From NCBI GenBank assembly GCA_951812925.1, contig OX638370.1, positions 30,061,964 to 30,125,963 of the forward strand: 64,000 nucleotides of DNA, read 5' to 3'. The position numbers and the translations under genes are program-made. The stretch comes from Calliopum simillimum. Taxonomy: Eukaryota > Arthropoda > Insecta > Diptera > Lauxaniidae. How positions within the stretch are numbered: the stretch's first letter is position 1; the number at the start of each line of letters is the position of its first letter. The notes under the pieces were generated by a model, which did no database searches, was not told where the DNA came from, and worked only from the letters and a program-made list of their open reading frames with translations. Below are positions 3,629-52,021 of this stretch, in pieces.

Positions 3629-5244
3629 CTGAGTATTTTTGTGACATACTGAATCCCATGTCTACCACATCCCCGCAACAAGAATCACCAACTACAACTG
3701 CTGCAGTGACTCGCAGTAGTAGCCGAATACAAACACCGCCGCCTACGATCTATGAAATAGTGGAAGCTATCCAAAGCATGAAAAACAACAAGGCCGCCGG
3801 TATAGATCAAATAACAGCTGAACTGCTAAAAGCATGCCCCACAGCATCAGCTAAAATTCTGCATCCTCTGCTCACCAAAATCTGGAGTGAAGAGCGTTTG
3901 CCAGAAGATTGGCTACATGGATTGTTAGTCAAATTCCCGAAAAAAGGTGACCTAAGCGAGTGCCGAAACTATAGAAGCATTACCTTGCTCTCAGTACCAT
4001 CAAATGTATTGACGAAAGTGCTTCTGAACAGGGTACACGAAAAACTTGATTCGGCCATTCGAAAACAGCAAGCAAGATTCCGGCGAAACCGTTCATGCGT
4101 GGATCAAATCAACACCCTCAGAATAATTGTCTAACAATCATGCGAATGGCGTGCTGCACTTCAACTTGTCTTCGTAGACTATAGCACTGCCTTCGACAAT
4201 GTCTCCCGAGAAAACATTTGGGTCTCACTGCAACGAAGAGGTATTGCCGCAAAGGCCATAAACTTAGAACGTGCACAATATGAAGGCTTTAAATGCAATG
4301 TGTTACACAATGGGTTGTTGTCACCGACATTCATCACTAATTCAGGCAAACGGCAGGGGTGTTTACTATCACCATCACTCTTCCTTATCGTTCTTGATGA
4401 TATCCTAGATAAAGCTCTTAATAAGGCCAAAAGGGGTATTCAATGGAACTTTACCGAACATCTGAAATATCTCGACTACGCTGACGACATCTGCCTCTTA
4501 TCGTCCAAACATTCAGATATGCAAAGCAAAATTGAAGACCTTGTCTTGGAATCACAAAAGGCCGGCCTAAAAATCAACGTATCCAACGCAAGCAATGACA
4601 TCACGTTTAGAGCTGGCAGTGATGACATCGGAAACGTCGATAGCTTCACGTATTTAGGCAGCATTATCTCCATGGATGGTGGAGCAAAAGAGGATATCAA
4701 CTCAATAATAGCAAAAGCAAAAGGCGCGTTTGCTCAACTGAACAAAATATGGTCTTCATCCGTTGTATCCACCAAAACGAGAGTGCGCATTTTTGATTCG
4801 AATGTGAAATCGGTTTTGTTATATGGGTGCGAAACGTGGCTTGTTACTGAACAACTAACGAACAAGTTGGAAGTATTCGTCAACAAATGCTTAAGGCGAA
4901 TACTAAAGTTTTGGTGGCCTCGCACTATATCAAATGCCGAGCTACATCAAAAATGCAATCAGAGGGCTATAACAATCGAGGTCAAGCTGCGCAAATGGAG
5001 ATGGATTGGTCACACTCTCCAGAAACCACACAGCGAAGTTTGTCGCCAGGCCCTTGAGTGGAATCCACAAGGTAGTAGAGGACGTGGTAGACCCAAAACC
5101 AACTGGAAGAGGTCGCTGGAAAATGAAATTCATGAATCGGGAAAGTTGTGGCAAGAGATTAAAGGCATCGCAAGGGATCGTGACAAATGGAGAGATTTCA
5201 TATTGGCCCTATGCTCCTCCTAGAAGTTAAAGGAGAATACATAC
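3629..5244 (+). mobile_element. RTE-like non-LTR retrotransposon, 5'-truncated
   Basis: A 1616 bp LINE copy is inserted in repeat family A. The octamer ATTGCATT lies on both sides, at 3621-3628 and 5245-5252, and is the target duplication. The family A text continues across the gap when compared with the copy at 31131-31952. The 3' end reads GGAGTTAAAGGAGAATACAT plus an ATACAT tail, as in the shorter copies at 49519-49947 and 62762-63288. The 5' end is missing, the usual result of incomplete reverse transcription. The RTE clade is my best guess from the RT and C-terminal motifs. Confidence 0.8.
3658..5223 (+). pseudogene. Reverse transcriptase of RTE-like LINE, one stop codon
   Basis: The frame encodes the RT part of a LINE ORF2 protein, the enzyme that copies element RNA at a nicked chromosomal target. 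The early RT motif NNKAAGIDQITAELLK is present. The catalytic YADD is at 4477-4488. After the RT comes the C-terminal region typical of this group: LLYGCETW, LRKWRWIGHTL, GRGRPKTNWKRSLE and the end ALCSS. The frame is broken by a single in-frame TAA at 4132-4134; reading continues in the same frame on both sides with no indel. The N-terminal endonuclease is missing because the copy is 5'-truncated. It therefore cannot make a working protein, but the damage is light, so the insertion is fairly young. Confidence 0.85.
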
Positions 5245-6004: not shown

Positions 6005-8826
6005 CTAATTAGAAGAAAAATATTCAATGACCAAATGCTTAAAACTGTTGAGTACCCTAATGTTCTTCAGATTATTAGGCAGAGAGTTCCAAATTCTTAT
6101 AGCGTGGATGAAAAAAAGTCTAGTAGAGTTGTAGTAATTAAATTGCGGAATGATTAAGTTATGAGATCTATTGGATAAGCTAAATTGTAATTTTTCAAAA
6201 AGATAATGCGGTGTCTTAGAGTTCATCAGTTTATAAAGGAAAACACAGTTTCTTGCCAAGAGATAATTTTCAAGTGAGCACCCAAGGATCTTTTCTTTCC
6301 ATGAAGAGATATGATCATATCTATGTATTGAGTAAACATATCGGGTGGCATTATTGAACGCTACTTTTAATTTGTGAAATGATTTCGAGTCCAATTTACT
6401 GTAAACCACATCAAAGTATGTTATCAAAGGAATTAAGAGACACAAAACAAGTCTGCGCTTAGTTTCAACTGGAGTAAAATCAGCAGACAAACGAAGGCAT
6501 CGTAGAGTCGAGTAGACCAACCAACAGAATTGATATGATCACAGCATGTAAGAGACGAATTGAGAACATATCCAAGGCATGTAGTTTTATTGACCAGTTT
6601 AAGTTGGGAGTTACCAATAAAAAGAGGAGGAATATCGTTGAGGTAAGGAATTTTACGGGAAATTGGTAAAACGTGTGATTTGATAGGATTTAAACAAAGT
6701 TTATTTTCTATGGCCCATCTGTTAACATCAGCTAAATCCTCATTAACTCGATAACACAAGTCATCAATAAGTCCGATTTGGCGGGAAAAATATATTTGTA
6801 TATCATCAGCATAGGCGTGAATTTTAACATTATTACATACTGAAAAAATGTCGTTGATAAATAGGCTAAACAAAAGTGGGCCTAGAACAGAGCCTTGAGG
6901 GACCCCAGAATGACACACTTTAGAGTCAGAGAAGACTTCACCCACTCTGACTTTTTGCAGCCTATCCTCTAGATAGCTTTTCATCAATCTCAAGGAATTA
7001 TCGCAGAATCCATAATAGTATTTTAATTTGGTACACAATATATCATGATTTACGCAGTCAAATGCCTTTGAAAAATCTAAGAGGCAAAGTAGGGTTAATT
7101 GCTCAAGATCATAATTAATACCAATATCATCTAATATTTTCAGCATTGCAGTATAGTAACTGTGACTTGCACGAAAACCTGATTGCATAGAAGATAAGAG
7201 TTCATTACTCGAGACAAAAGTATTAATTTGGTCAGCCAAAAGTGCCTCAAATGCTTTGGAAAGGGAAGACAGTATGCTTGTAGGTCTGAAATCATTCGGA
7301 GCAGAACAAGACGATTTTTTAGCAACAGGGACAACAACAGCAACTTTCCATACTTTAGGAAAATAAGATGTTGCAATGCTATGGTTAATAATGTGTGTTA
7401 TAGGCCTGAGTATGTATGGCAATATTAATTTGATGAATTTAATTGAAATAGCATCCTCTCCAATAGCATTAGACTTAATTTTCATTATTGCCTTATACAC
7501 ATCAAATTCCTCAACAACATGAAATTCAAACGAATTCATAGAAGAACAAAAATTATTTCGATTAGGCTCAAACACCCTGTTATTACTCGCCAGGCTTTTC
7601 AATATAAAAAAATCATTCAGTATATTTGGATCAGCATTGCATTCAGCAATTACTTTTTTTCGGACACCGAGATCTTTTAAGTTCGTCCACAACTGCTTTG
7701 TCGGCAGTGCAGTGTTTAATTTGAGTGCATAATAATCTTTTTTGGCTTGGCGTACCGCACAGATAGCTGCATTACGAGCCAACCTATATGCCTCCCAACA
7801 GTCAGCAGTTAATTTTTTCTTCCATATTGAATGCAATTTATTACGTTCCTTAATTTTAACCTTGACAATGGCTGTGATCCACGCACAGGAATTCCTTCGT
7901 ATTTGTATACTACGAACAGGGACATGAGCATTAAAAATATTGATGATTTTAGAATTAAAGGAATCTAATTTGCAATCAACAGAAGAGTGCATCCAGCACT
8001 CATTCCAGTCTATTTGGACTAACTCAGCATAAAGAGCATCATATTGAATTGATTTAAAATCACGATAAGTTATAATCGTAGGTTCACATTTCCGAGAAAG
8101 ATTTATATTAAGAGTGCAGAATAGCATATCATGATCAGAAATAAAGAATATTTGGTCAAAAATAAGCACCGCTGAGGTATCAGACACAATAAACAAGTCC
8201 AGTAAACTTGGACAAGCATTATTTGCGAACCGTGTGGGCATAACTGAAATTACCACTGATAGCCCAACCTCACTAACCTGATCATAAAATCTCTCCGTTA
8301 TGGTATCATTTATTAACAAATTAATGTTTAAGTCACCACAAACCACGTAATATTGATAGTCAATAAGTCTTAAGCTAAATTCAGTAAAAAAAGTTTCTAG
8401 GTTGAAGGACCGTTTGGGGTTGTAGACGCAGGAGACCATTACCTTCGTATTTTTATCATATACTTCTAAGTTTAAGTATTCAATAGTCTCACTGGAGGAC
8501 TTACTGATGACTTTAGCATTAAGATAGGATTTACAGTAGATTGCAACTCCACCTCCTTTTCTATTATTCCTGTCATTTCTAAATAAACGATAGCTTGGCA
8601 AGTTGAAAAAAGAATCATTCACATCTTTACTAAACCATGTTTCGGTTATGCAAATGATGTCAACTGATGAACTTTCAAAAACATACTTAATGTAGTCCAT
8701 TTTTGTTGAATTCACACTTCTGGCATTAAAATGCACAATTTTTAAGCCATCATATTGATTGCACATTACATTCAACAACACTTTATGACACCCAACACTA
8801 TTGTTACCATCAGAATCTAAAGACAT
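6005..8826 (-). pseudogene. LINE ORF2: endonuclease and reverse transcriptase, one frameshift
   Basis: The product nicks the chromosomal target and reverse-transcribes the element RNA. The first third is an AP-like endonuclease, with HFNARSVN, CITETWF, GGGVAIY, VCGDLNIN and the catalytic SDHDM. The RT follows, with LLDFSKAFDCVNH, SGVPQGSVLGP and YADD at 6802-6813. The C-terminus carries IWNSLPNNL, common in this group. The frame runs open from ATG at 8826 to about 6520, then the same protein continues in another - frame to the stop at 6005, with an 88-base overlap of frames at 6433-6520. One small indel near 6510-6530 is therefore the only lesion seen. The total is about 940 residues. An upstream TTG at 8847 also opens the frame, but the ATG at 8826 is the more natural start. 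Confidence 0.85.
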
Positions 8827-9023
8827 GCATAAATGTCTTAACAGCAATAAGCATTTTTAATTTAGGCCAAAAAAAGGAAATTGTACCGAAATTAAACCAA
8901 ATATAATGATAAAAGTATCCAAACATCTTTACAAAAACAAAAATCGAAAAAAAGATCAAGATTAAAAACAAAAAACAAGGTACGAGGTTAGCAGTCGACT
9001 GGAGTGGATTGTTCAGTACTATT

Positions 9024-34660: not shown

Positions 34661-34664
34661 GCTT

Positions 34665-36927
34665 TGTAATGTACGATTTTGAATTTTCATTTTTTTGGAT
34701 TTTTTATGCAGGAATATAAGCTTTTTTCTTTTTTGTTGCGATTTCTTAATTTATATTTGGTCAACAATTCTGAATTTCATATATTGATCATTTTATTGCG
34801 TTAACAAAAATTCCTATAATATGGACGTAATTAGGTTGTTGTCTATGACACAAAAGATTAATATCCGGTTGAGCACAATTAAACAAACCTTTCAATATGA
34901 TTCGGACCATATCCGCTCTCATGTTGAATGTGATCTTTCTTTTTGGATCTAGACAGCACATGGAACAGGTCAAAGTGATAAATTAATCTATCAAAGTATA
35001 AGTTCTATATATAGTCATCATCAAAAAGATTACATCGGCAATTTTTCATCATAAAATTGTGATCATAAAATATCACAATATTTTGATAGTAAAATTTTGT
35101 CTATTTTACACGAAGTAAGGTATGTTAAATCATAGTAAATTTTTTTCTACATTCAATTTTCATACCTAGGATTTTGCTTTTAAAGTACGGTGATAAAGTA
35201 AAACTTTTTCCTTTAATAGGCTGAATTATTCACAAATTTTCGTGCAAAAATTCAATTTAAGCTGCATAATAGCAGCCAAGAAATTAATTGATAAAATTGA
35301 TTAAAATCAGTGTCCGCCTGAAGAAAAAATAACTTTGCTGATCGTAGGTGATCTGCGGTGCCGATATATAAAGCTGTTATGTCCAAAAAGAAAGAGGAAA
35401 AAATATAAAAAATTGTCTGAACGCAGTTATACGGAGTTTTCGCTACGCAGAGTGCATGATTTCTCAAATTTAAGCTAGCTATACGCAACTTTAACAGAAG
35501 TATAAAAATAAGAAGTAAAATCCGTAATTTTTCCATTAAAAAACATAGAAAGAATTAAAAAAACATAAACGTATGTAAATTATATCTGATCATAAAATTT
35601 CTTTAAAATAATAAGTGATCAAAATACTAAATTCAATTAGTTCTAAGTACGTATACACCAGAATCATCGTATGTAAACGACAAAATCACCATGAAGGGCC
35701 TTTCTGCGTTGGATATGTCGGTGAGTTCTTATTAAATTAATTAAAACTATTTTGTATTTATCACTTGGTGCTAGGCTGTGTAATTTCCATATATAAAATC
35801 ATTTACATACATTAAAAAACATATAAGTACATATAGAGTTTAGTTGAATCAAAATTGATAGAAAAGTGTCATGCGAGAAAAATGTTCATGCTTTGCATGC
35901 ATAGCGATAGCGGCAGCGCAGTAAGAGAGTAACTCTCGACGATCTTGCTAACGCAATGCTTTGCTGTTTGCTCTGCTTGCATTGAATGCATTTTTCTTCT
36001 GTTATTGCACATTCCATCATTCAATTGTCAAATGCAAGTTTTCGTATTTTGTTTACCTTTGTGTCGAATTAGAAGCTTTAGGGTATATAGCATTTTAAGT
36101 GCCTGCATTTCTAGTTTTAGTTTGATTTCTTCATAATTTTGTTATGATTTTCATATTCCTTCAATAAGTTTTTGAGTGATATGTGAATAGTAAAATTAAG
36201 TTAATTTCTTTAAAGATACACAGATTTGAAAATCTTTCGGTTTGCGTCGTGTAAGAGACCAATATAAAGATAGAAATTAAAAAAAGAAAGAAGAATTTGA
36301 ATTAATAGTACCGAAATGGTAATACTTATGTTTAAGTGAAAATTGTGCCAAATAAAAAATTTTGTCATTTTCTAAATTAAATTATGCAGTGGTTTAAAAC
36401 TTTTTTTTTGAGTGAAACGAATACCATTATGGCTTGCTAAGTAAGTTCATTTTCCTTGATGTAATATGTAGGGTTAGGGGTAGTTAAGTTCGTTCAGGGG
36501 TCTTATAAAGTGTCGTACCGTAAAATAAGACCAATGGTAGGGTGGGTAGTGAGTGCGTATCTTCGGTCCATCATGAAGGTACATCGCAACTGTGTTGTAG
36601 TTTGATACCTTAGTTGAAATAGTTTCATTTTTTTTGTTGATTTTCTCATACATGGTCATATTGGGGTTTTTTAATTTTGTTGATCGTGCTGGTTCATTTT
36701 GATTTATATCGTTTATTAAAGGAGTCTATAATAATTTAAGTATGTAGAAATTGGTTAGTAGAATTGGTCACGTACCCCCCCACCCGACTGAAGCTAGCAG
36801 CTTTAATGGCTCCTGCCCGGCTTTTTCTATTACCACAAAAATGGTGTTGGCTTGTTCAAGCTTCTAATTTTGAGGTTTGACATCCAGTACAGATGGTTTC
36901 ATACCAAAACGAATTATCTACATTACA
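34665..36927 (+). repeat. 5' LTR
   Basis: The 2263 bp repeat is essentially identical to 42924-45185. TGTAATG and CATTACA are its terminal 7 bp inverted repeats. Two TATA-like boxes are present, TATATAAA at 35365-35372 and TATATA at 36084-36089, and AATAAA lies at 36351-36356 as a likely poly(A) signal, so R could lie between the second box and this signal. At 36040-36900 the LTR is less AT-rich, with a C-run at 36774-36780. Confidence 0.92.
35365..35372 (+). promoter_or_regulatory. TATA box in LTR (also at 43623-43630)
   Basis: TATATAAAG is a strong TATA consensus. About 320 bp downstream lies an ATG in good context (CACCATGA, ATG at 35691) opening ten codons that end exactly at GTGAGT (35721), a consensus splice donor. 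This suggests a spliced transcript starting in the LTR, separate from the one expected from the second TATA-like box at 36084. Confidence 0.4.
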
Positions 36928-36932
36928 AAATT

Positions 36933-36950
36933 TGGCGCCCAACGTGGGGC
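36933..36950 (+). promoter_or_regulatory. Primer binding site, tRNA-Lys(CUU)
   Basis: TGGCGCCCAACGTGGGGC begins five bases after the 5' LTR. It is an 18-base perfect complement to the 3' end of the Drosophila tRNA-Lys(CUU) as I know it (ending in CCCCACGTTGGGCG plus CCA). Minus-strand cDNA would be primed here. Confidence 0.88.
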
Positions 36951-37838: not shown

Positions 37839-39497
37839 ATGGCTGTACGGCACAGTGCAGAAGATTTGCCAGGGTTAGTACCTCATGCAGAATCCTCATG
37901 CACAATCTGCTTACAGGCTCTTACAAATGGTGCAGAGTGTATGATTACACGATGTAACCATGTATTCCACAAGAATTGCATCGAGCAATGGCTTACAGAC
38001 GTTCAAGAGTGTCCAAACTGTAGACGGACATCACTAGCAAATGAGTTAGTTTCAATAAGCGTTGAAACACAACCTCAGGCTAACAATTCTAGTCGCAGTA
38101 ATGCAAATTCAATTCAAAATTCGGCGCGCAGTAACAGTAATAATCGTGGTCGCGGCACTGTCCCCAAAAGACATAATACACGCGGATTTAGGCGAAGAGT
38201 AGATGAGGCTGCAAATCAATCCCCTCACTCACACCGAAACAATTCAAATTTGAATCAAAACAATTCAGATTCGAATCGAAATATTTCAAACTTGAATCGA
38301 CATAATTCTGAAAATTTACCATTACCATTACTTGACTTTGACCTTCCATCAGCAAGTGTAAGAAATAATGTTACTCATACGCAACCAAGAGCAATAAATA
38401 ATACCAATGTGCCAGCAATTGATTATAATCAAATCTCAGTCATGATCGAAAATAGTTTACAACGAATGTTGTCAAATTTAAACTTGCAGTCGAATCAAAG
38501 ACAAAGTAATCCAGTCATTAATCCGGTAGTTCACAATATTAGTCCAAATTTAAACCCATTGCGTGCAGCTAATGACGCTTATATACAAAATCCTATAGAG
38601 TCAGTGAACAGTTTGAATTTTAATCTCAGAGTTGACAAAATCGCTTCTATAATACAGAAATGGAACGTTAGATTTGACGGTTCTTCGAATGGCTTAAGTG
38701 TCGAGGAGTTTCTTTATAGAATTTGTTCGTTGACTTCGGCAAGTCTTAATAATGATTTTCAATCACTTTGCAGCAATTTACATATTCTTTTGTTTGGTAA
38801 AGCCAGAGAGTGGTACTGGCGTTATCACAAGCAGGTACACCACGAAGGAATTCGTTGGGAAACTTTTTGCGAGGCTATTAAAGAGCAATATAAAGAATAT
38901 AAGACAGATTTTGATATTCTTGAAGAAATTCGTGGCAGAAAACAAAAGCCAAGTGAATCATTCGAAACATTTTATGAAGCAATTATGACAATTACGGATC
39001 GATTATCCACAAGACCTTCAGATCATGATCTTATAGAAATCATATCCCGTAACCTTAAACCAGATGTTAGGCATGAGCTTTTATACGTGAAAATAAATTC
39101 CATAGCACACTTGCGAAGTTTATGTCAAATGAGAGAGAATTTGTTGTCCGAAGAAGCATTCAAGCGGATGCAACAACCTCGCCAATCTCAAAATATTAAT
39201 AATATGCAGCGACGAAATATTTCAGGAATTGATTCTAATATATTGTCAAATGATGAAGATGTCCTTTCGACAGAAAACACTAACTGTATTGACGCCCTGC
39301 AACAACACATTTCAATTTGTTGGAATTGTGATCAGGATGGTCACCATTGGCAGGATTGTTTAGATGATAAACAGATTTTTTGCTACGGCTGTGGTGAAAA
39401 AAATACATACAAGCCACAATGTCGTAAATGTATTAGTAAGCGTTCGGAAAACGTGAAAGGGGGTCCCTTCAACAACACCCGATCGGCAGCCCGTTAA
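37839..39497 (+). CDS. Gag with N-terminal RING-H2 finger
   Basis: A 552-residue structural protein. Residues 21-61 form a complete C3H2C3 RING-H2 finger: C21-x2-C24-x14-C39-x-H41-x2-H44-x2-C47-x10-C58-x2-C61. It has Ile23 between the first cysteines, Trp51 and Pro59, which in known RING ligases contact the E2 enzyme, and Arg62 at the linchpin position. Residues ~75-190 are Asn/Ser-rich low complexity. A retroviral-type Gag core follows at about 265-450 (KWNVRFDGSSNGLSVEEFL, KAREWYWRYH, FETFYEAIM). Residues 494-507 are a CCHC knuckle (C-x2-C-x4-H-x4-C). The second, 515-528, has Thr in place of the zinc-binding His. The ATG at 37839 is the first in frame and is needed for the RING. From the family: Gag assembles the particle and packages RNA. 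The inference is that this one also ubiquitinates something. Confidence 0.9.
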   Translation: MAVRHSAEDLPGLVPHAESSCTICLQALTNGAECMITRCNHVFHKNCIEQWLTDVQECPNCRRTSLANELVSISVETQPQANNSSRSNANSIQNSARSNSNNRGRGTVPKRHNTRGFRRRVDEAANQSPHSHRNNSNLNQNNSDSNRNISNLNRHNSENLPLPLLDFDLPSASVRNNVTHTQPRAINNTNVPAIDYNQISVMIENSLQRMLSNLNLQSNQRQSNPVINPVVHNISPNLNPLRAANDAYIQNPIESVNSLNFNLRVDKIASIIQKWNVRFDGSSNGLSVEEFLYRICSLTSASLNNDFQSLCSNLHILLFGKAREWYWRYHKQVHHEGIRWETFCEAIKEQYKEYKTDFDILEEIRGRKQKPSESFETFYEAIMTITDRLSTRPSDHDLIEIISRNLKPDVRHELLYVKINSIAHLRSLCQMRENLLSEEAFKRMQQPRQSQNINNMQRRNISGIDSNILSNDEDVLSTENTNCIDALQQHISICWNCDQDGHHWQDCLDDKQIFCYGCGEKNTYKPQCRKCISKRSENVKGGPFNNTRSAAR

Positions 39498-42400
39498 GTT
39501 TAGAAACGCAAATATTTTCAAATTTATTACCGGCTAGCTCAAGTGATTTAGCCACAGATAGTTTTAGTAAAAATACTTCAAATATAAAAATTTTAAAACG
39601 AGAGAGGTGTCCCGAAAATGTTCATAAGCCAGTGCTATATCCTATTCGCACTTACCATGAACGATGGAACCAATATAATACGGTAAAACGTAGAATTTTT
39701 AGCGACTTTCCTAATTTAGATTCAAATGAATATAAAGTGAAAAGATCTACCTTAAGATTACGCAGATTTTGGAGAGCTTTGAAAAATACTAAAAAATTAT
39801 TAGTCTCAGCTGTCTTCAACAATAATGACGACATGCGCTTTTATGCTAAAGTGTCATTTTTAAATCGTACTGAAAATGGTCTGTTAGATACCGGGGCCAA
39901 TATAAGCTGTATAGGGTCTGAGCTTGCGCTAGAAAATTTTTCAAAATTAAAAACTTTTCGTAATTCTAATTCTTCAGTTAAAACTGCGGATGGCACAATT
40001 CAAAAAGTTTTAGGATGGATTGAAGTCGATATACAATATAAAGGTATTTCCAAAAAAATTAAATTATTTATCATACCTTCAATTTCACAAAGATTGATTC
40101 TTGGTATAGATTTCTGGAAGGCATTCAAGTTAGCTCCAAATCTTATCTCCTCTATTGAGTTACCAGAAAATAGTTTCGTAGAGAACACTAATTTAGATGA
40201 CGAAAAATTATATCCTCTTACTGCAACTGAACGTCAACAGCTTGAAACAGTTCAATCACTTTTTCCAAATTTTGAACAGCAAGGACTAGGAAGAACGAAT
40301 TTATGTCAACATCATATTGATGTTGGTGAAGCGAAACCAGTGAAGCAACGCTTCTACCCTGTGTCGCCAGCTGTAGAGAAGTTGATGTTCAATGAAATAG
40401 ATAGGATGTTGCAACTAGGTGTAATTGAGCCGTCGACGAGCGCTTGGAGTTCTCCAATGAGGATGGTTATAAAACCGAATAAAATAAGACTTTGTTTAGA
40501 TGCTAGAAAAATTAATGAAGTGACAAAAAAGGATGCATATCCGTTGCCTAGTCTAGAAGGTATTTTCGCAAGATTGCCTAAAGCAAATCTCATTACAAAG
40601 ATAGATCTTAAAGATGCCTTCTGGCAGATCGAGCTTTCACCAGAGTCAAAACCATTAACCGCTTTCACTGTCCCAGGACGTCCTTTATACCAATTTGTTG
40701 TTATGCCATTCGGTCTCTGCAACGCGGCCCAGACAATGTCTAGACTCATGGACGAAATAATTCCGGCTGACTTACGTCACTGTGTATTTGGGTATTTGGA
40801 CGACTTGTGCGTTGTGTCAGAGGACTTTGAAACTCATCGTGCTATTTTGGTTAGGATTGCAGAAAAATTTAGACAAGCGAATTTGACTATAAATATAAGT
40901 AAGAGTAAATTTTGCGTTACTCAAGTTAAATATCTTGGTTTTTTAATAGGTAATGGTGGAATAGCGACTGATCCCGAAAAGATCAATTCAATTTTATCTT
41001 GGCCTGTGCCAAAGAGCCTCAGACAAGTTCGAGGGTTTTTAGGGCTTGCTAGTTGGTATAGAAGATTCATAGCCAATTTTTCAGACATAACTTTCCCCAT
41101 TACAGAAACGCTTTCTACAAAAAAGAAATTTTCTTGGACTGACGATGCTCAAAAAGCATTTGAAAAATTAAAAGTTTTGCTTACTTCAGCTCCTGTTCTT
41201 ATTAATCCAGATTTTGGTAAAAAATTTTTTGTTCACTGCGACGCCAGTAATTACGGTATAGGTGCTGTACTTATACAAATCTCAGACGATGGGACTGAAA
41301 AGCCCGTCGCATTCATGTCTAAAAAACTAAATTCAGCCCAACGTAATTATAGCGTCACAGAACGTGAATGCTTGGCAGCAATCGAAGCCATAAAACGATT
41401 CAGATGCTATTTAGAGATGCAAGAATTTGAAGTGGTCACAGATCACTCAAGCCTTGTATGGCTAATGCGGCAGCAGGATTTGCAGGGACGACTTGCTAGG
41501 TGGGCGCTCAAGCTCCAAGCTTACAAATTCAAAATTAGTCATCGCAAGGGCAAAGATAATGTGATTCCAGATGCTCTATCGAGGATTCATTGTGAAGAAA
41601 TAGGTGCTTTAGAAGATGTTGGCCCAGAAATTGATCTGAGTTCAAGTCATTTTGAAGACCCTGATTATGAGACATTGAAAGAAAAAATCCGAAAAAATCA
41701 AGAAAAATACCCTGACATTAAGATTGTTGATAAATTCATATACTATAGAACAGATCACTATACTGGCAATTGTGAAGAAGAAAATTATGCCTGGAAACTG
41801 TGGATACCAGAAAAGCTTAGGATGCAAGTGCTTGAAAGAGCACATGAATCGGTAATTGCCGCACATGGGGGAATGATTAAAACACTTGACTTAATTAGGA
41901 GACATTTTTACTGGCCAGGTATGGTGCGAGATATACGTGATTTTGTAAGAAAATGTGACATTTGCAAAGAAACTAAAGCCACAAATATTAGTCTTAAACC
42001 ACCCATGGGAGCTCAAGCCATATCGTGCAGGCCATTTCAGCGTATCTATATAGATATTCTCGGTCCATACCCTAGAACTAAACTCGGTTTCATAGGTTTA
42101 CTTATTGTTGTTGATCATACAACTAAATTTCATTGGTTGTGCCCTTTGAAGAAGTTTACAGCTGACGCAATTCAGAAGTTTTTATTAGAAAGTATTTTCC
42201 ATATGTATGGTGTACCAGAAATTATTGTAAGCGATAACGGCTCGCAATTTAAGTCGAATGAGCTTAACGCTTTTTTCACGAAATTAGGAATAACACATAC
42301 ATATACAGCTTTGTATTCCCCACAATCGAATGCATCAGAGCGGGTTAATCGAACTCTGATAGCAGCAATTCGAGCGTACCTGAAAGGTGATCATCGTCAG

Positions 42401-42868
42401 TGGGATCAAAATCTTACCGCAATCAGTTGTTCTCTAAGAAATTCTATACATCAATCTCTGAAATGCTCTCCTTATCATGCACTTTTCGGTTACGATATGA
42501 TTACACACGGATCTACATATTCACTTTTAAAAAACCTTGATCTTTTGGAAGAATCAACATATAAACTAAGTCGTGATGACAAACTAGATTTACTACGTAA
42601 AGATTTACAAAAAAATATAAAAGATGCGTATGATAGAAATGCGCAGCAATATAATTTACGGACTCGTTTAGTTTCTTATAAAATAGGACAAGAGGTGTTT
42701 AGGCGAAATTTTGCCCAAAGCAGTTTCGAGAAAAATTTTAATTCAAAGCTTAGTCCAGTTTTTATAAAAGCGCGTGTTCGGGAAAAGATTGGGAACCACT
42801 ACTACGTTTTAGAAGATTTGCAAGGAAAAATTATGGGAACCTACCACGCCAAAGATATTAGGCAGTAG
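39440..42868 (+). CDS. Pol: protease, reverse transcriptase, RNase H, integrase
   Basis: The frame is open from 39440, in the -1 frame relative to gag with a 58 bp overlap, so it is probably made as Gag-Pol by -1 frameshifting. Numbering residues from the GTG codon at 39632 (not a proposed start): protease DTGA at 86-89 with ILGIDFW downstream; RT with Asp325 in KIDLKDAFWQ and YLDD at 388-391; RNase H with Asp537, Glu579 and Asp604; integrase HHCC zinc finger H738, H745, C775, C778; and catalytic Asp808, Asp868 and Glu903 (34 residues between the last two). The C-terminus ends 55 bp before the 3' LTR. All catalytic residues are present and there is no stop or frameshift, so it looks functional. 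No chromodomain and no env follow. Confidence 0.93.
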   Translation, partial: AFGKRERGSLQQHPIGSPLSLETQIFSNLLPASSSDLATDSFSKNTSNIKILKRERCPENVHKPVLYPIRTYHERWNQYNTVKRRIFSDFPNLDSNEYKVKRSTLRLRRFWRALKNTKKLLVSAVFNNNDDMRFYAKVSFLNRTENGLLDTGANISCIGSELALENFSKLKTFRNSNSSVKTADGTIQKVLGWIEVDIQYKGISKKIKLFIIPSISQRLILGIDFWKAFKLAPNLISSIELPENSFVENTNLDDEKLYPLTATERQQLETVQSLFPNFEQQGLGRTNLCQHHIDVGEAKPVKQRFYPVSPAVEKLMFNEIDRMLQLGVIEPSTSAWSSPMRMVIKPNKIRLCLDARKINEVTKKDAYPLPSLEGIFARLPKANLITKIDLKDAFWQIELSPESKPLTAFTVPGRPLYQFVVMPFGLCNAAQTMSRLMDEIIPADLRHCVFGYLDDLCVVSEDFETHRAILVRIAEKFRQANLTINISKSKFCVTQVKYLGFLIGNGGIATDPEKINSILSWPVPKSLRQVRGFLGLASWYRRFIANFSDITFPITETLSTKKKFSWTDDAQKAFEKLKVLLTSAPVLINPDFGKKFFVHCDASNYGIGAVLIQISDDGTEKPVAFMSKKLNSAQRNYSVTERECLAAIEAIKRFRCYLEMQEFEVVTDHSSLVWLMRQQDLQGRLARWALKLQAYKFKISHRKGKDNVIPDALSRIHCEEIGALEDVGPEIDLSSSHFEDPDYETLKEKIRKNQEKYPDIKIVDKFIYYRTDHYTGNCEEENYAWKLWIPEKLRMQVLERAHESVIAAHGGMIKTLDLIRRHFYWPGMVRDIRDFVRKCDICKETKATNISLKPPMGAQAISCRPFQRIYIDILGPYPRTKLGFIGLLIVVDHTTKFHWLCPLKKFTADAIQKFLLESIFHMYGVPEIIVSDNGSQFKSNELNAFFTKLGITHTYTALYSPQSNASERVNRTLIAAIRAYLKGDHRQWDQNLTAISCSLRNSIHQSLKCSPYHALFGYDMITHGSTYSLLKNLDLLEESTYKLSRDDKLDLLRKDLQKNIKDAYDRNAQQYNLRTRLVSYKIGQEVFRRNFAQSSFEKNFNSKLSPVFIKARVREKIGNHYYVLEDLQGKIMGTYHAKDIRQ

Positions 42869-42923: not shown

Positions 42924-45185
42924 TGTAATGTACGATTTTGAATTTTCATTTTTTGGATTTTTTATGCAGGAATATAAGCTTTTTTCTTTTTTGTTGCGAT
43001 TTCTTAATTTATATTTGGTCAACAATTCTGAATTTCATATATTGATCATTTTATTGCGTTAACAAAAATTCCTATAATATGGACGTAATTAGGTTGTTGT
43101 CTATGACACAAAAGATTAATATCCGGTTGAGCACAATTAAACAAACCTTTCAATATGATTCGGACCATATCCGCTCTCATGTTGAATGTGATCTTTCTTT
43201 TTGGATCTAGACAGCACATGGAACAGGTCAAAGTGATAAATTAATCTATCAAAGTATAAGTTCTATATATAGTCATCATCAAAAAGATTACATCGGCAAT
43301 TTTTCATCATAAAATTGTGATCATAAAATATCACAATATTTTGATAGTAAAATTTTGTCTATTTTACACGAAGTAAGGTATGTTAAATCATAGTAAATTT
43401 TTTTCTACATTCAATTTTCATACCTAGGATTTTGCTTTTAAAGTACGGTGATAAAGTAAAACTTTTTCCTTTAATAGGCTGAATTATTCACAAATTTTCG
43501 TGCAAAAATTCAATTTAAGCTGCATAATAGCAGCCAAGAAATTAATTGATAAAATTGATTAAAATCAGTGTCCGCCTGAAGAAAAAATAACTTTGCTGAT
43601 CGTAGGTGATCTGCGGTGCCGATATATAAAGCTGTTATGTCCAAAAAGAAAGAGGAAAAAATATAAAAAATTGTCTGAACGCAGTTATACGGAGTTTTCG
43701 CTACGCAGAGTGCATGATTTCTCAAATTTAAGCTAGCTATACGCAACTTTAACAGAAGTATAAAAATAAGAAGTAAAATCCGTAATTTTTCCATTAAAAA
43801 ACATAGAAAGAATTAAAAAAACATAAACGTATGTAAATTATATCTGATCATAAAATTTCTTTAAAATAATAAGTGATCAAAATACTAAATTCAATTAGTT
43901 CTAAGTACGTATACACCAGAATCATCGTATGTAAACGACAAAATCACCATGAAGGGCCTTTCTGCGTTGGATATGTCGGTGAGTTCTTATTAAATTAATT
44001 AAAACTATTTTGTATTTATCACTTGGTGCTAGGCTGTGTAATTTCCATATATAAAATCATTTACATACATTAAAAAACATATAAGTACATATAGAGTTTA
44101 GTTGAATCAAAATTGATAGAAAAGTGTCATGCGAGAAAAATGTTCATGCTTTGCATGCATAGCGATAGCGGCAGCGCAGTAAGAGAGTAACTCTCGACGA
44201 TCTTGCTAACGCAATGCTTTGCTGTTTGCTCTGCTTGCATTGAATGCATTTTTCTTCTGTTATTGCACATTCCATCATTCAATTGTCAAATGCAAGTTTT
44301 CGTATTTTGTTTACCTTTGTGTCGAATTAGAAGCTTTAGGGTATATAGCATTTTAAGTGCCTGCATTTCTAGTTTTAGTTTGATTTCTTCATAATTTTGT
44401 TATGATTTTCATATTCCTTCAATAAGTTTTTGAGTGATATGTGAATAGTAAAATTAAGTTAATTTCTTTAAAGATACACAGATTTGAAAATCTTTCGGTT
44501 TGCGTCGTGTAAGAGACCAATATAAAGATAGAAATTAAAAAAAGAAAGAAGAATTTGAATTAATAGTACCGAAATGGTAATACTTATGTTTAAGTGAAAA
44601 TTGTGCCAAATAAAAAATTTTGTCATTTTCTAAATTAAATTATGCAGTGGTTTAAAACTTTTTTTTTGAGTGAAACGAATACCATTATGGCTTGCTAAGT
44701 AAGTTCATTTTCCTTGATGTAATATGTAGGGTTAGGGGTAGTTAAGTTCGTTCAGGGGTCTTATAAAGTGTCGTACCGTAAAATAAGACCAATGGTAGGG
44801 TGGGTAGTGAGTGCGTATCTTCGGTCCATCATGAAGGTACATCGCAACTGTGTTGTAGTTTGATACCTTAGTTGAAATAGTTTCATTTTTTTTGTTGATT
44901 TTCTCATACATGGTCATATTGGGGTTTTTTAATTTTGTTGATCGTGCTGGTTCATTTTGATTTATATCGTTTATTAAAGGAGTCTATAATAATTTAAGTA
45001 TGTAGAAATTGGTTAGTAGAATTGGTCACGTACCCCCCCACCCGACTGAAGCTAGCAGCTTTAATGGCTCCTGCCCGGCTTTTTCTATTACCACAAAAAT
45101 GGTGTTGGCTTGTTCAAGCTTCTAATTTTGAGGTTTGACATCCAGTACAGATGGTTTCATACCAAAACGAATTATCTACATTACA
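42924..45185 (+). repeat. 3' LTR
   Basis: The 2262 bp repeat is one T shorter than the 5' LTR in the run near 42950 and otherwise the same wherever compared. AATAAA is at 44609-44614. The 25 bp before it (CACATTTTCAAGTT at the end) are not purine-rich, so the expected polypurine tract is not visible. Confidence 0.92.
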
Positions 45186-45189
45186 GCTT

Positions 45190-45700: not shown

Positions 45701-46853
45701 AGGGTAGAAATTAAAAAGGGTATTAAAAGTATTTGTTTCATATTGAGCAGTTCCAAGCTTCTAAAAAAAAATTTACTGATTGTAGTGGTACAATTTCGGT
45801 CACAAGGCGAACTCTAGTAATCTTAAAATTCACCACAAATTTTTATTGATTTTTATTTTGTTTGTGTACACAATTAAATTTTGAAATTTTTTAAAAATTT
45901 TTAAAACACCCTAGAAGCCACACTTCATGCACGATTAGTGCGGCATCTTTTCAGCACAAAAAACCAATAGGCGTTGAGAGTTTAGGAAAAATGACACTCA
46001 ATTAAATTGCGTGCGGTAAATTGTCAAGTCTTTGCACACACACACACACAGTTGACAAAGCGCGCTCTCGCACACATAACCCACATTATTGACATTCACA
46101 TGTAATTTGAGCTTGTGTGAACTGTCAGCTGTCAAATGTTAACTACTGTAGCGGCATATTTTATAACGCAAATCTTTCAAAAAGAATGTGAATGTGCTCC
46201 AAAGATCAATTGCTTGATCGTACTAATCACATTTAAATATTCACTACCGCCTTTGCTCTCTTTCTCGAATTGAAAAAAATGTCGGCACTCTTTTGACAGA
46301 TTTGTTGCGGTCCTTATCGTTTGAATTAACTTGCAATCATGCATTATGGTGCGCTCCCCTTTATCTGGAGAGAAAGAAAAAAGTAAAGTGTTGCCACCCT
46401 CTAATCTTGAAATAGCTAAGTCATTTTAGCTTTTCATCTATAGTTTTTTTTTTTTTCTTTTTTAATGGGGCCCCCCAAAATACTCAATACATTATGCTCA
46501 TAATAATGAAGTTATTATTACTTTATATCTTGGATGTCATACGCCTTTTAACGTTTCACGCTTACGCTATAATCGCGCGCATTTTTGGTGGTCATTTGAT
46601 TTTTAAGGAAGTCGTTTAGTTTTTGTAATTTTTTTTTTTTTTTTAGTTTGGTTTTTTCTTTTGCTGGCTCTATCTTTTGGTATGTAAATCATGTGATATC
46701 TATAAAAGTAAAAAATTTATTGATTTTTATAGAACGTAACTAATTTTTAGTGTATATCGTTATGCTATTGATTCGTTTTGGCTTCAATTTTCCCATATAC
46801 TGGATGTTTCCCACGGGAAGTTGATAGTTTGTACCTTTTGGAGACATGCATAC
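45701..46853. other. Non-coding gap
   Basis: No gene is seen. A CA microsatellite lies at about 46034-46049 and poly-T runs at 46444 and 46628. GGGGCCCCCC lies near 46467. Confidence 0.45.
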
Positions 46854-48971
46854 CACGGCGCTGTCCTGAGAATTTAAATAACGATAACAACACCCCTCTG
46901 GGGTTATTTCATATTATGAAAGCCTATTAAATTCTGCATATTTTGGTGAATTTTTAAAAAAATCGTTAGAGCGCTTTTTGGAAAAAAGCCAAAAAACCGT
47001 TAAAATTGAAATGAAAAAAAAGTTTTGAGTTGACACACAAAAATTAAATTTTTATCAATATTTTAATAAATAATGATTAAAATGTGTATATATTATAAAA
47101 GTATATTATATTCTAAAAAATATAAGACTAAGTAGAAAAAAATCGATGGACCGATTTTCGAAAAACTGGCAAAACACCGTTAAAATTTCAATGAAAATCA
47201 ATATTTTTAGTCGACATATGAAAATTAGTTTCGCTGATTATTGTAACATATAATGAAAATTATAAATATACACACATATTTAATATATATCATGTATGTT
47301 TTCTATAGAATAAAATGTTTACGTTCCTTAACAAAAAAACACTGAAAAAAATGATTACAAAAATTATTTAGTTAAAAAAATATCGTTAAAATTGGAGTTA
47401 GCCCGACAAAATTCGGATTTTGCTGCAAAATAGTTCGAAGTGAAATTTTGTCACAAGAATACTCTTTATTTATGCATGAAAGATAAAGTGTGAAAAAATC
47501 ATAGTGAAATCTTCTACGCATAAAAAGTTATTCAAGGTCAAAGGTCGAAAAAATCAGTTTTTTGCAAATATCACACTAACGGTTACTTTTTCAGAAAAAT
47601 AGGTCTAAACAATTTTGTAGTCCTTAAAATTTTCTATGGAAAAGACCTGAGAGTGGTTTTCGTACGACTTACAGTTTAGGAGATATTCTAATTAAAAAAG
47701 TGTCAAAGCTTAGAAATGCATGCATGCGGTATATAAGTGTGCATAGCCACATGTTGATTTTTAATGTGCCATAACTTATGAACGATGAGTTGCACGAAAA
47801 AAACAAAACCATCAGGTTATAGGGAATTGTATGCTCTATAAATGATAAGCAATGTATGTACACATACAATTTACCGTTTAGGAGTTATTCAATGAAAACC
47901 ATAAAAATTAAGGACAACATTAAAAAAATCTGTTTTTATTGAATTACTCCTAAACGGTAAATTGTATGTGTACATGCATTGCTTATCATTTATAGAGCAT
48001 ACAATTCCCTATAACCTGATGGTTTTGTTTTTTTCGTGCAACTCATCGTTCATTGGCACATTAAAAATCAACATGTGGCTATGCACACTTATATACCGCA
48101 TGCATGCATTTCTAAGCTTTGACACTTTTTTAATTAGAATATCTCCTAAACTGTAAGTCGTACGAAAACCACTCTCAGGTCTTTTCCATAGAAAATTTTA
48201 AGGACTACAAAATTGTTTAGACCTATTTTTCTGAAAAAGTAACCGTTAGTGTGATATTTGCAAAAAACTGATTTTTTCGACCTTTGACCTTGAATAACTT
48301 TTTATGCGTAGAAGATTTCACTATGATTTTTTCACACTTTATCTTTCATGCATAAATAAAGAGTATTCTTGTGACAAAATTTCACTTCGAACTATTTTGC
48401 AGCAAAATCCGAATTTTGTCGGGCTAACTCCAATTTTAACGATATTTTTTTAACTAAATAATTTTTGTAATCATTTTTTTCAGTGTTTTTTTGTTAAGGA
48501 ACGTAAACATTTTATTCTATAGAAAACATACATGATATATATAAAATATGTGTGTATATTTATAATTTTCATTATATGTTACAATAATCAGCAAAACTAA
48601 TTTTCATATGTCGACTAAAAATATTGATTTTCATTGAAATTTTAACGGTGTTTTGCCAGTTTTTCGAAAATCGGTCCATCGATTTTTTTCTACTTAGTCT
48701 TATATTTTTTAGAATATAATATACTTTTATAATATATACACATTTTAATCATTATTTATTAAAATATTGATAAAAATTTAATTTTTGTGTGTCAACTCAA
48801 AACTTTTTTTTCATTTCAATTTTAACGGTTTTTTGGCTTTTTTTCAAAAAGCGCTCTAACGATTTTTTTAAAAATTCACCAAAATATGCAGAATTTAATA
48901 GGCTTTCATAATATGAAATAACCCCAGAGGGGTGTTGTTATCGTTATTTAAATTCTCAGGACAGCGCCGTG
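46854..48971. mobile_element. Near-perfect 2.1 kb palindromic element
   Basis: The arms are 46854-47899 and 47932-48971, separated by a 32 bp spacer. The ends read CACGGCGCTGTCCTGAG inward from both sides, and ATAC flanks the element on both sides (46850-46853 and 48972-48975). Arm identity looks about 99%: a few substitutions and one ~6 bp gap (near 47772 against 48053). There is no protein; the short frames at 47669-47869 and 47962-48156 are mirror images of each other. A CAC start with a 4 bp duplication would suit CACTA/Chapaev-type transposases, but this is only a guess. Confidence 0.85.
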
Positions 48972-48975
48972 ATAC

Positions 48976-49518
48976 GTACGTATTTATAATTAAATTTGAT
49001 AAAAAATCCAAACAAACAGAATTTTACTCTCAGAATTAAACCATGAAGTTTTGTAGATCCTGAATGAAATTGTGTCTCTGAAATGGTTCAGCTCGTAAGG
49101 TTTTAATTCTTGTTAATTTTGAAATTCTTTACACTTGATCGAATACATTTACATTTCTTGTACGTAGATTTGTCCATTTTTGTGCTTCTCAGTTGGACGC
49201 AGTTTTTGCAGGAGTCATTTAAGAAAGTTCCATACGTACCGTGTCACTTACTCATGTTCACTTTGCTAACTTCGGGCATTTATTCCTTATAGTTAACGTA
49301 TATTATTAACTTTTGCTTCTCACCCGACTGTAAAATCTTTGCACTTTTATCTGAAAAGACAGTTTCCGAAGCCATTATTTTTTATGTTTTTATAACCTTA
49401 AAGAAAATGTCATCTGATTCGCGCTTGTTGGTAATATTTTTAACTCTTTTTGGGACTTTTATTTAAAAAAGTCATAAAACTTTAAAAAATCGTTAAAAAT
49501 AATTTTAGTTATAGCCTA
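48976..49518. other. Non-coding gap
   Basis: AT-rich with no recognisable frame or repeat. Confidence 0.4.
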
Positions 49519-50840: not shown

Positions 50841-51044
50841 CCATACTTCATTTCAACAAGCAGCTCCAAAGACTCTCATATACCAAATTTCCGGTGTAAT
50901 CAGTTTTAGTTAATTCTTGTCAGAAGCTACACTCGAACACTTTATTCCGGTTTTCTAATGAAAAAAACGCTGTTTTAAGATTGCGAACTGTTTTTGTACT
51001 TAATCAAATAACTTAATTCTAAAGTTTTCTTTAAATTTTTTCAG

Positions 51045-52021
51045 GACGCGATTCAGATATCAGCGATACAGAATCAGAACCCGGTATACCGCTAAAACGC
51101 AAACAACGACGTTCACGCACCACCTTTACCGCCGAACAATTGGAGGCATTAGAAAGAGCTTTCAGTCGCACACAATACCCGGATGTGTATACACGCGAAG
51201 AATTGGCACAAACTACCAGCTTAACAGAGGCACGCATACAAGTGTGGTTCAGCAATAGACGTGCACGCTTGCGCAAACATTCAGGCGGTTCAAGTTCTGG
51301 CCTATCTCCTATGAATAGTTCAGGGCTAATGGGCCCTGGAGGTGGTGCTGCAGGAGCCGCTGCACCATTAGGCTTTGGCAGCCTCGCAGTAGGTTCCATG
51401 GCCGGCTATAGTCCTGCAGCTGGCACTACAGCCAGCGGTGGACTTAATGAAAATGCACATGCGCATGCTGCTGCAGCAGCGGCCGCAGCACATCATCCGC
51501 ATCATCAGATGAGTAGCTATGATTTGATGGCAGCACAATCGGCGCAACATGGTTTTCCAAGTAGTTTTCAACATGGACATTTCGGTGGACAAACTTACTA
51601 TCATCAAGGTAAGTTCTTCGTGAGAATACATCTTTCGCGCTGTGCATATTTGAAATACAATCCCTTCGTTCACTTTTCAGACTATTCCAAGCTTAGCATC
51701 GATGACTTTTCCAAGTTGACCGCTGAGGGCGTTTCAAAGATCTCACCATCGCTGCATCTTAGCGAGAACTATTCAAAACTCGATCATCACTCGGCAAATT
51801 GGTCTCAAGCGGCCTATCACCTCAATCAGTCTGCGGCCGCTGCTGCTAATTATAATGTTGCGGCGGCGCATCACGTACATGCCGCTGCGGCTGCGCAACA
51901 TTCGCTTAACGATTATTCAAATGCAGCGGCACATAGTAATCAATTGAATTCAGCAGCAGTGGCGGCAGCAGCTTACAATCATCCGCTACCGACACAGGGT
52001 CAAGCGAAATATTGGACGTGA
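51045..52021 (+). CDS. gsb-n: gooseberry-neuro-like Pax3/7 homeodomain protein, last two exons
   Basis: A nuclear transcription factor of the paired class; in Drosophila gsb-n acts in segment and nervous-system patterning. Exon 1 is 51045-51608 (acceptor TTTTTCAG before it, phase 1) and exon 2 is 51681-52021, together 300 residues plus TGA. The homeodomain is 51104-51283 (60 codons, [10 protein letters not shown] to RARLRKHS), with Ser at position 50 (WFSNRR), typical of Pax homeodomains. The tail has Ala and His runs, then [20 protein letters not shown] and ends GQGQAKYW-like (TQGQAKYWT). The [14 protein letters not shown] core and this tail agree with gsb-n rather than gsb or prd as I remember them. 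The paired domain and start codon lie upstream and were not found in the window. Confidence 0.85.
51609..51680 (+). other. gsb-n: 72 bp last intron of gsb-n, frame-preserving
   Basis: The donor GTAAGT follows TCATCAAG and the acceptor is CACTTTTCAG. Splicing joins a phase-1 codon to make YYHQ-DYSKL, which matches the Drosophila protein as remembered. The intron length is a multiple of three and it has no in-frame stop, so an unspliced mRNA would encode 24 extra residues and stay in frame. Confidence 0.85.

What the first reader, a model, noticed from the sequence alone, without database searches (positions are those of the whole stretch)
37839..38024. Retrotransposon Gag that begins with a complete RING-H2 (E3 ligase) finger
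Seen: the first 63 codons of gag spell a canonical C3H2C3 RING-H2 with all eight zinc ligands at regular spacing, plus Ile23, Trp51, Pro59 and Arg62, the residues that in known RING E3s grip the E2~ubiquitin. The finger is in one unbroken frame with a normal Gag core and zinc knuckle, in an element with near-identical LTRs, so it is not an assembly join and is evolving under recent activity. Known: retroviral Gags recruit host ligases through short PPxY-type motifs; I know of no described Gag carrying its own RING. Inference: the capsid protein may ubiquitinate itself for budding or trafficking, or host factors such as silencing proteins. The RING may have been captured from a host E3 gene.
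Basis: partly seen in the sequence, partly recalled or inferred. Interest (0 to 1): 0.88.

Follow-up and report, generated by a model that had tools for sequence, protein, structure and literature searches.

The report
RING-finger capsid protein in fly retrotransposon
A young retrotransposon, apparently of a fly, makes a capsid protein that starts with an intact RING finger, the ubiquitin-attaching module of many cell enzymes; such a capsid was noted in print in 2013, and here the module proves to be an old, selected and sometimes discarded part of a large family, its activity still untested.

Summary
Gag (37839-39497) begins with a complete RING-H2 (Pfam zf-RING_2 1.7e-12), modelled at pLDDT 94-97 and superposing on RNF165 bound to UbcH5b~Ub (0.6 A, 45 columns). 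The element is young (LTRs 99.96% identical). In its own genome 103 of 108 long Gag frames, in 31 families, keep all eight zinc ligands; over 12 families RING omega is 0.055, capsid 0.051, linker 0.225. Of the 150 best RING-H2 matches in the genome, 108 lie just upstream of a Gag capsid domain.

The novelty claim fails: PMC3630058 (2013) reported a RING in a blowfly Osvaldo-lineage Gag and in Osvaldo. Trp51 and Arg62 are not general: 20 and 16 of 123 wider Gags, but 28 and 27 of 31 own families. A natural sister group lacks the RING yet keeps both flanks. Best reading: an old accessory module of Osvaldo-type Gags, in the W+R class probably a working E3 clustered by Gag assembly, elsewhere weakened or deleted. 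Activity and substrates are untested.

The parts
34665..36927 (+). 5' LTR, 2263 bp (TGTAATG...CATTACA), preceded by target-site duplication GCTT at 34661-34664
   Evidence: boundaries, 99.96% identity to the 3' LTR
36933..36949 (+). primer-binding site TGGCGCCCAACGTGGGG, read as tRNA-Lys type
   Evidence: sequence; tRNA-Lys assignment recalled, no tRNA compared; Osvaldo-lineage use of Lys from PMC3286476 (passages)
37839..39497 (+). gag, 552 codons plus stop
37887..38036 (+). RING-H2 module, residues 17-66 (ligand span C21-C61 = 37899-38021)
   Evidence: selection
38037..38624 (+). linker, residues 67-262, lysine-poor, mostly low-confidence in the model apart from a helix at 196-213
38625..39188 (+). 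two-lobed capsid domain, residues 263-450 (Ty3/Arc type)
39318..39359 (+). CCHC zinc knuckle, residues 494-507
39381..39431 (+). second zinc box C515-x2-C518-x9-C528-x2-C531, invariant or nearly invariant in 85 Gags
39440..42868 (+). pol open frame, -1 relative to gag, overlapping gag by 58 nt; protease, RT, RNase H, integrase
42924..45185 (+). 3' LTR, 2262 bp, followed by target-site duplication GCTT at 45186-45189

Best explanation
The feature is a long-standing accessory module of Osvaldo-lineage Ty3/gypsy Gag proteins: a RING-H2 of the Arkadia/RNF165 type set between a short N-terminal peptide and an arginine-rich linker in front of the capsid domain. Most likely mechanism: in elements that keep Trp and Arg at the two E2~ubiquitin positions, as this one does, the RING recruits a UbcH5-type E2~ubiquitin and holds it closed; Gag assembly brings many RINGs together, so ubiquitin transfer is strongest on or beside the particle, onto Gag itself or host proteins that touch it. 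The likely gain is control of particle fate (trafficking, uncoating) or removal of a host factor. In other lineages the E2~ubiquitin residues are lost while zinc binding is kept, and in one sister group the whole module is gone. Shown: module, conservation, selection, predicted fold, existence of RING-less relatives. Inferred: E2 binding, ligase activity, clustering, target, direction of loss.
For: RING profile and solved relatives. Model RING pLDDT 94-97; RNF165-UbcH5b~Ub 0.6 A over 45 columns. Own genome: 103 of 108 Gag frames of 480 aa or more have all eight ligands, in 31 families; W51 in 28, P59 in 31, R62 in 27. Both synonymous codons are used at every Cys and His ligand among 20 family representatives, with no amino-acid change there. 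Omega, 12 families: codons 1-16 0.047, RING 0.055, capsid 0.051, linker 0.225. W51 and R62 align with the Arkadia W and R; PMC9954413 reports that Arkadia Trp972 lies in the helix contacting E2 and that changing Arg983 to Ala or Lys impairs ubiquitylation (passages). W and R occur together: 40 of 55 W rows have R, 9 of 144 others do.
Against: No biochemical data. W51 in only 20 and R62 in 16 of 123 wider rows, Lys being commonest at 62 with 79. The link of W and R is not significant after phylogeny (about 5 independent pairs, median p 0.25). RING-less relatives exist in numbers, one of them in this genome (L140). In the one family pair with unsaturated synonymous sites the RING is less constrained than the capsid (dN/dS 0.158 against 0.043; linker 0.292), and RING positions other than ligands and E2 residues vary almost as much as the linker over 20 families (pN 0.37 against 0.45). 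An expected trace of self-ubiquitination, a lysine-poor linker only in RING carriers, failed: RING-less Gags are poorer in lysine still (0.87% against 2.93%). Foldseek E-values of the RING matches are 1e-3 to 1e-2; only capsid chains pass 1e-3.
Confidence: 0.6

Rival explanations
1. The RING is a non-catalytic zinc-bound interaction module (dimer contact, host-protein binding or packaging) in most or all members; E2~ubiquitin residues are a fading inheritance.
For: Each ligand is kept in 121 to 123 of 123 rows while W51 is in 20 and R62 in 16; three own-genome families keep all ligands without W or R. PMC9954413: Arg to Lys at this place impairs Arkadia (passages).
Against: 28 of 31 own-genome families keep W51 and 27 keep R62; P59 is in 118 of 123. 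Without catalytic use there is no clear reason for W and R to persist while synonymous sites saturate.
Confidence: 0.25
2. Self-control: Gag ubiquitinates itself and is degraded as concentration rises, limiting copy number or host damage.
For: Many RING E3s modify themselves (established knowledge, recalled); families here show 1 to 9 long copies each (lower bounds, as only the best candidates were scored).
Against: A purely self-limiting module should be lost by selection among copies, yet ligands and E2 residues are kept. No lysine pattern supports it.
Confidence: 0.1
3. Built-in substitute for late domains: the RING ubiquitinates Gag so that ESCRT exports particles in vesicles.
For: This Gag has no PPxY, P[ST]AP or YPxL motif; its capsid matches dArc1/dArc2 and PEG10, whose particles are released in vesicles (recalled).
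Against: No env-sized frame. Natural RING-less Gags also lack these motifs, 0 of 42, while a few RING Gags have one (PPxY 8, P[ST]AP 4, YPxL 8 of 188), so losing the RING was not offset by gaining a motif.
Confidence: 0.1
4. Assembly chimaera or a fortuitous reading frame upstream of the true gag start.
For: The nearest copy (L002, 96%) matches only from residue 72.
Against: L002 breaks off at residue 73 and has unrelated sequence beyond, so it is a truncated fragment, not a RING-specific loss. 103 of 108 long own-genome frames carry the RING; codons 1-16 are constrained (omega 0.047).
Confidence: 0.01

Closest known systems
Cv_Isis-like of Calliphora vicina (Osvaldo lineage; Negre and Simpson 2013, PMC3630058)
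   Same: Two ORFs, LTRs of about 2.6 kb, 4-bp target duplication, 531-aa Gag with a RING finger (passages). Protein P0021, C. vicina, 531 aa and named 'E3 ubiquitin-protein ligase' in UniRef, is probably that Gag: 39% identity to this one over 94%.
   Different: P0021's RING has Ala at the Trp position and Lys at the linchpin position (sequence); this one has W51 and R62.
Osvaldo and Isis of Drosophila buzzatii
   Same: Same lineage by LTR length, primer site and 4-bp duplication; Osvaldo is said to carry the RING.
   Different: Isis is said to lack the RING, and by implication to have env. Neither sequence was compared here.
Arkadia / ARK2C (RNF165) RING-H2 E3 ligases
   Same: Best sequence matches and close fold matches; same W-to-R spacing of 11.
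   Different: Host E3s, no capsid domain; similarity is about 40% over 45-52 residues, no proof of descent.
TRIM5alpha
   Same: Works-like only: RINGs clustered on a capsid lattice, where proximity of three RINGs raises chain synthesis (PMC9675739, abstract opening in the listing).
   Different: Host restriction factor acting on a foreign capsid; here the RING is part of the capsid protein itself.
Orchid Ty3/gypsy elements with an AlkB m6A demethylase (PMC9289625)
   Same: LTR element with an added enzyme-like domain (abstract).
   Different: Separate ORF, different chemistry, in vitro activity shown; here activity is untested.

Membership tests
RING-H2 (C3H2C3) domain | eight zinc ligands at canonical spacing, profile match over cut-off | tested here: met
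   zf-RING_2 47.8 bits against cut-off 27.3; sequence
RING-H2 (C3H2C3) domain | RING fold | tested here: met
   predicted model only: (RING chains at probability 1.00, E 1e-3 to 1e-2)
RING E3 ubiquitin ligase | E2-contact hydrophobics, Trp, Pro and linchpin Arg | tested here: met
   I23, W51, P59, R62 present in this element; W and R not general in the wider family
RING E3 ubiquitin ligase | ubiquitin transfer with an E2 | not testable with these tools
   needs a biochemical assay
Osvaldo lineage of Ty3/gypsy (Metaviridae) | long LTRs of about 1 kb or more | tested here: met
   2263/2262 bp; stated range 997-2055 bp for Culex members in PMC3286476, 2574-2577 bp in PMC3630058
Osvaldo lineage of Ty3/gypsy (Metaviridae) | primer site complementary to tRNA-Lys | tested here: inconclusive
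   TGGCGCCCAACGTGGGG after the LTR; match to tRNA-Lys recalled, no tRNA compared
Osvaldo lineage of Ty3/gypsy (Metaviridae) | 4-bp target duplication and gag plus pol ORFs | tested here: met
   GCTT in flanks
Osvaldo lineage of Ty3/gypsy (Metaviridae) | pol phylogeny with Osvaldo, Ulysses, Isis | not tested
   no named reference pol was fetched
Ty3-type Gag | two-lobed capsid fold and CCHC knuckle | tested here: met

The most novel reading that the evidence does not exclude
A self-assembling capsid protein that is its own ubiquitin ligase: each Gag carries an Arkadia-like RING, so building the particle builds a dense ligase array, switched on by assembly, whose zinc ligands and E2~ubiquitin residues a mobile element has kept across dozens of families, so that retrotransposon capsids carry most of the best RING-H2 matches of the host genome.
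Probability: 0.4. Interest if true: 0.82.

Novelty: new member of a known kind. Interest (0 to 1): 0.58.

Why it matters
If the W+R class is active, a class of retroelements carries its own ubiquitin ligase in the capsid instead of borrowing host ones. The family gives a natural experiment: related Gags with a catalytic-type RING, with a RING lacking the E2~ubiquitin residues, and with no RING. It also warns annotators: in this genome at least 108 of the 150 best RING-H2 matches lie just upstream of a Gag capsid domain, and public records already name such Gags E3 ligases (P0021; P0193, 'RNF126-A' of Lucilia cuprina).

Tried and rejected
Lysine-desert idea: this Gag's linker has one lysine in about 200 residues, which could mean avoidance of self-ubiquitination; natural RING-less Gags are poorer still (0.87% against 2.93% lysine over 42 and 188 rows), so the idea is not supported.

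Nearest sibling lacking the RING: L002 (96%) stops matching at residue 73 with unrelated sequence beyond; a truncated fragment, not RING loss.

Unbiased sampling: a core-only search of the protein database from this element still found mostly RING Gags (102 of the 120 listed carry a precomputed RING domain); only a second hop from the divergent P0083 showed the RING-less group.

W/R coupling: strong in raw counts (Fisher 6e-21) but not significant over independent pairs. Pairwise dN/dS is mostly undefined because synonymous sites are saturated. Omega comes from a simple codon model (kappa 1.0 in the RING run shown); one search printed no omega, the values were read from its log files.

Viral and prokaryotic contig collections gave no relatives. 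Donor gene: not resolved; no host RING tree was made. No slippery heptamer of the pattern searched was found in the gag-pol overlap.

Literature: (held open-access library; in several only the top 12-20 of the matching papers are listed, for example 12 of 1,241) showed me no study of Gag-RING function. Papers opened: PMC3630058, PMC12910113, PMC3175473, PMC12992720, PMC3286476, PMC12326332, PMC9954413 (passages); PMC3098803 (term search without match); PMC9289625 (abstract and outline).

Full report
Observation. The open frame beginning at the ATG at 37839 gives a 552-aa Gag. Residues 20-62 match Pfam zf-RING_2 with 47.8 bits against a cut-off of 27.3, and the closest solved chains are Arkadia, ARK2C/RNF165 and ZNRF3 RINGs at about 1e-10. 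Behind it come a linker, a Ty3-type capsid domain, a CCHC knuckle and a second four-Cys box. The element is bounded by LTRs of 2263 and 2262 bp that differ by one gap, flanked by GCTT on both sides, with a primer site TGGCGCCCAACGTGGGG just inside the 5' LTR. pol is in the -1 frame, overlapping gag. No env-sized frame follows.

Structure. An AlphaFold2 model from an 85-row alignment (mean pLDDT 71.8, pTM 0.41) has the RING at pLDDT 94-97 and residues 261-440 of the capsid at 84-97 by blocks of ten, with most of the region between at low confidence. Foldseek superposes the RING on RNF165 in complex with UbcH5b~Ub (5ulk, 0.6 A, 45 columns, E 6.7e-3) and on TRAF6 and TRIM21 RINGs; the five matches at E 0.001 or better are all capsids, dArc1 and HTLV-1. 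VIA-align 2 adds PEG10, copia and Ty3 capsids for the capsid part. W51 and R62 align with the W and R of Arkadia. In PMC9954413 (passages) Arkadia Trp972 lies in the helix that contacts UbcH5B, and Arg983 changed to Ala or Lys impairs ubiquitylation, with Lys leaving E2 binding intact. PMC12326332 (abstract and passages) says the linchpin residue varies among E3s and tunes transfer.

Siblings in the same genome. The window lies in a 690-Mb genome. I fetched gag-sized stretches for 77 places of the first search (L009-L085) and, after a capsid-only search that cannot favour RING carriers (150 places scored), 54 more (L086-L139); with the window that makes 132 places. 108 have a frame of 480 aa or more, in 31 families at 85% nucleotide identity. 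103 of 108 keep the whole ligand set; four have lost one ligand and one starts within the RING, each a single copy in a family with an intact member. By family, W51 is kept in 28 of 31, P59 in 31 and R62 in 27; the three families without W also lack R. The other 24 places have shorter frames; in some the RING lies in that frame or in another, in others none is seen in the stretch. Of four further places fetched later, three carry a RING (two of them without Trp) and one, L140, is a RING-less Gag with the conserved start. Thirteen places were not fetched.

Selection. Among the first 20 family representatives both synonymous codons occur at every Cys and His ligand, with no amino-acid change there. 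A codon model gives omega 0.047 (codons 1-16), 0.055 (RING), 0.051 (capsid), 0.225 (linker) and 0.168 (nucleocapsid part) for 12 close families, and 0.047, 0.074, 0.050, 0.230 and 0.179 for 20. Synonymous sites are saturated in most comparisons, so these rank regions rather than measure them. In the one pair of families with unsaturated sites (L056, L066) dN/dS is 0.158 for the RING, 0.043 for the capsid and 0.292 for the linker, so the RING stands between the two; and over 20 families RING positions other than the ligands and the four E2~ubiquitin positions change freely (pN 0.37, linker 0.45), while ligands show 0.0 and the four positions 0.044. Constraint is thus focused on zinc binding and E2~ubiquitin contact. 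Constraint on codons 1-16 argues that translation starts at codon 1.

Relatives elsewhere. A whole-Gag search found 88 relatives, 75 with a precomputed RING domain; a search with the Gag core alone found 140, of which 120 are listed and 102 of those carry one. Over 123 of 139 rows (138 proteins and this Gag) with an aligned N-terminus, the ligands in order are kept in 121, 122, 123, 122, 123, 123, 123 and 123 rows, P59 in 118, I/V/L at 23 in 112, but W51 in 20 and R62 in 16, with Lys in 79. The other 16 rows start inside the RING, after it, or are unclear. On a tree of the capsid and nucleocapsid part (142 rows), W is strongly clustered: 38 of 41 rows in a starred set around this element have it. 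Names include Ceratitis, Lucilia, Calliphora, Haematobia, Stomoxys and Musca.

Natural RING-less Gags. A second hop from the divergent P0083, using its core only, returned 117 proteins, many of about 400 aa without RING, plus RING Gags of Drosophila gunungcola, elegans and miranda. With all rows together (271: 251 proteins and 20 own families), a pattern scan puts 188 as RING, 42 as RING-less with an intact start, and 41 as truncated or unclear, a few of which have an off-pattern RING (these 41 were dropped from the next count). On the tree of the remaining 230 rows, which is only partly resolved, five changes suffice, the midpoint root is RING-bearing, and one clade of 44 has 40 RING-less and four RING rows. 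A start of the form M-x-[VLI]-x-[HR]-S is found in 34 of 42 RING-less and 43 of 169 RING rows, and in a hand-picked alignment of 21 rows the RING sits as a cassette between this start and an arginine-rich linker that both kinds share. Loss is the simplest reading; no outgroup secures the root.

Genome-wide weight. Of the 150 best zf-RING_2 matches scored in this genome, 60 lie within 2.6 kb upstream, on the same strand, of a capsid match and 48 more upstream of one from the P0083 capsid search: 108 of 150. The other 42 were not examined.

Known or new. [quoted passage not shown] The kind is therefore in print, in one sentence. A 2026 Drosophila virilis survey lists RING among domains in a figure legend (PMC12910113, passages). 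(open-access library, capped lists) showed me no functional study. Not found there, and added here, are the breadth, the selection, the split into W+R and W-less classes, the RING-less sister group and the genome-wide share.

Mechanism. I favour an E3 whose activity is concentrated by Gag assembly, by analogy with TRIM5alpha, where proximity of RINGs on a capsid lattice raises chain synthesis (PMC9675739, abstract opening). Activity, E2, substrate and benefit are inference. The budding idea is weakened by the lack of env and by RING-less relatives that also lack late motifs (0 of 42). A lysine-avoidance signature was tested and failed. The non-catalytic rival is serious for W-less lineages, and less so for this one.

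Noticed in passing
window 51035-51400 (+): Homeodomain exon (Pfam 6.7e-23); by eye Pax6/eyeless-like (recalled). The element ends about 6 kb from it.
   Followed up: partly
window 46844-48981: Large inverted repeat, arms 928 nt at 99% complementarity plus an inner pair of 122 nt: a foldback-like element just downstream of the retrotransposon.
   Followed up: no
window 4135-5220 (+), 6436-8856 (-): Two LINE-type reverse-transcriptase frames, one with an endonuclease domain.
   Followed up: partly
window 39381-39431 (+): Second zinc box after the CCHC knuckle (C-x2-C-x9-C-x2-C), invariant or nearly so in 85 Gags; role unexplained.
   Followed up: no
window 38037-38624 (+): Linker depleted of lysine but rich in arginine; stronger still in RING-less relatives, so not explained by the RING.
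   Followed up: partly
window 39440-39497 (+): gag-pol overlap needs a -1 shift, but the slippery-heptamer pattern searched was not found.
   Followed up: partly
L140 (G000:C2:73386758-73388229): Natural RING-less Gag in the same genome, starting MPIIRSEENIP (open frame 425 aa), beside the RING-bearing families.
   Followed up: partly
protein P0250: A RING-bearing Gag is filed under the wheat rust Puccinia striiformis; insect DNA in that assembly is the likely cause (inference).
   Followed up: no
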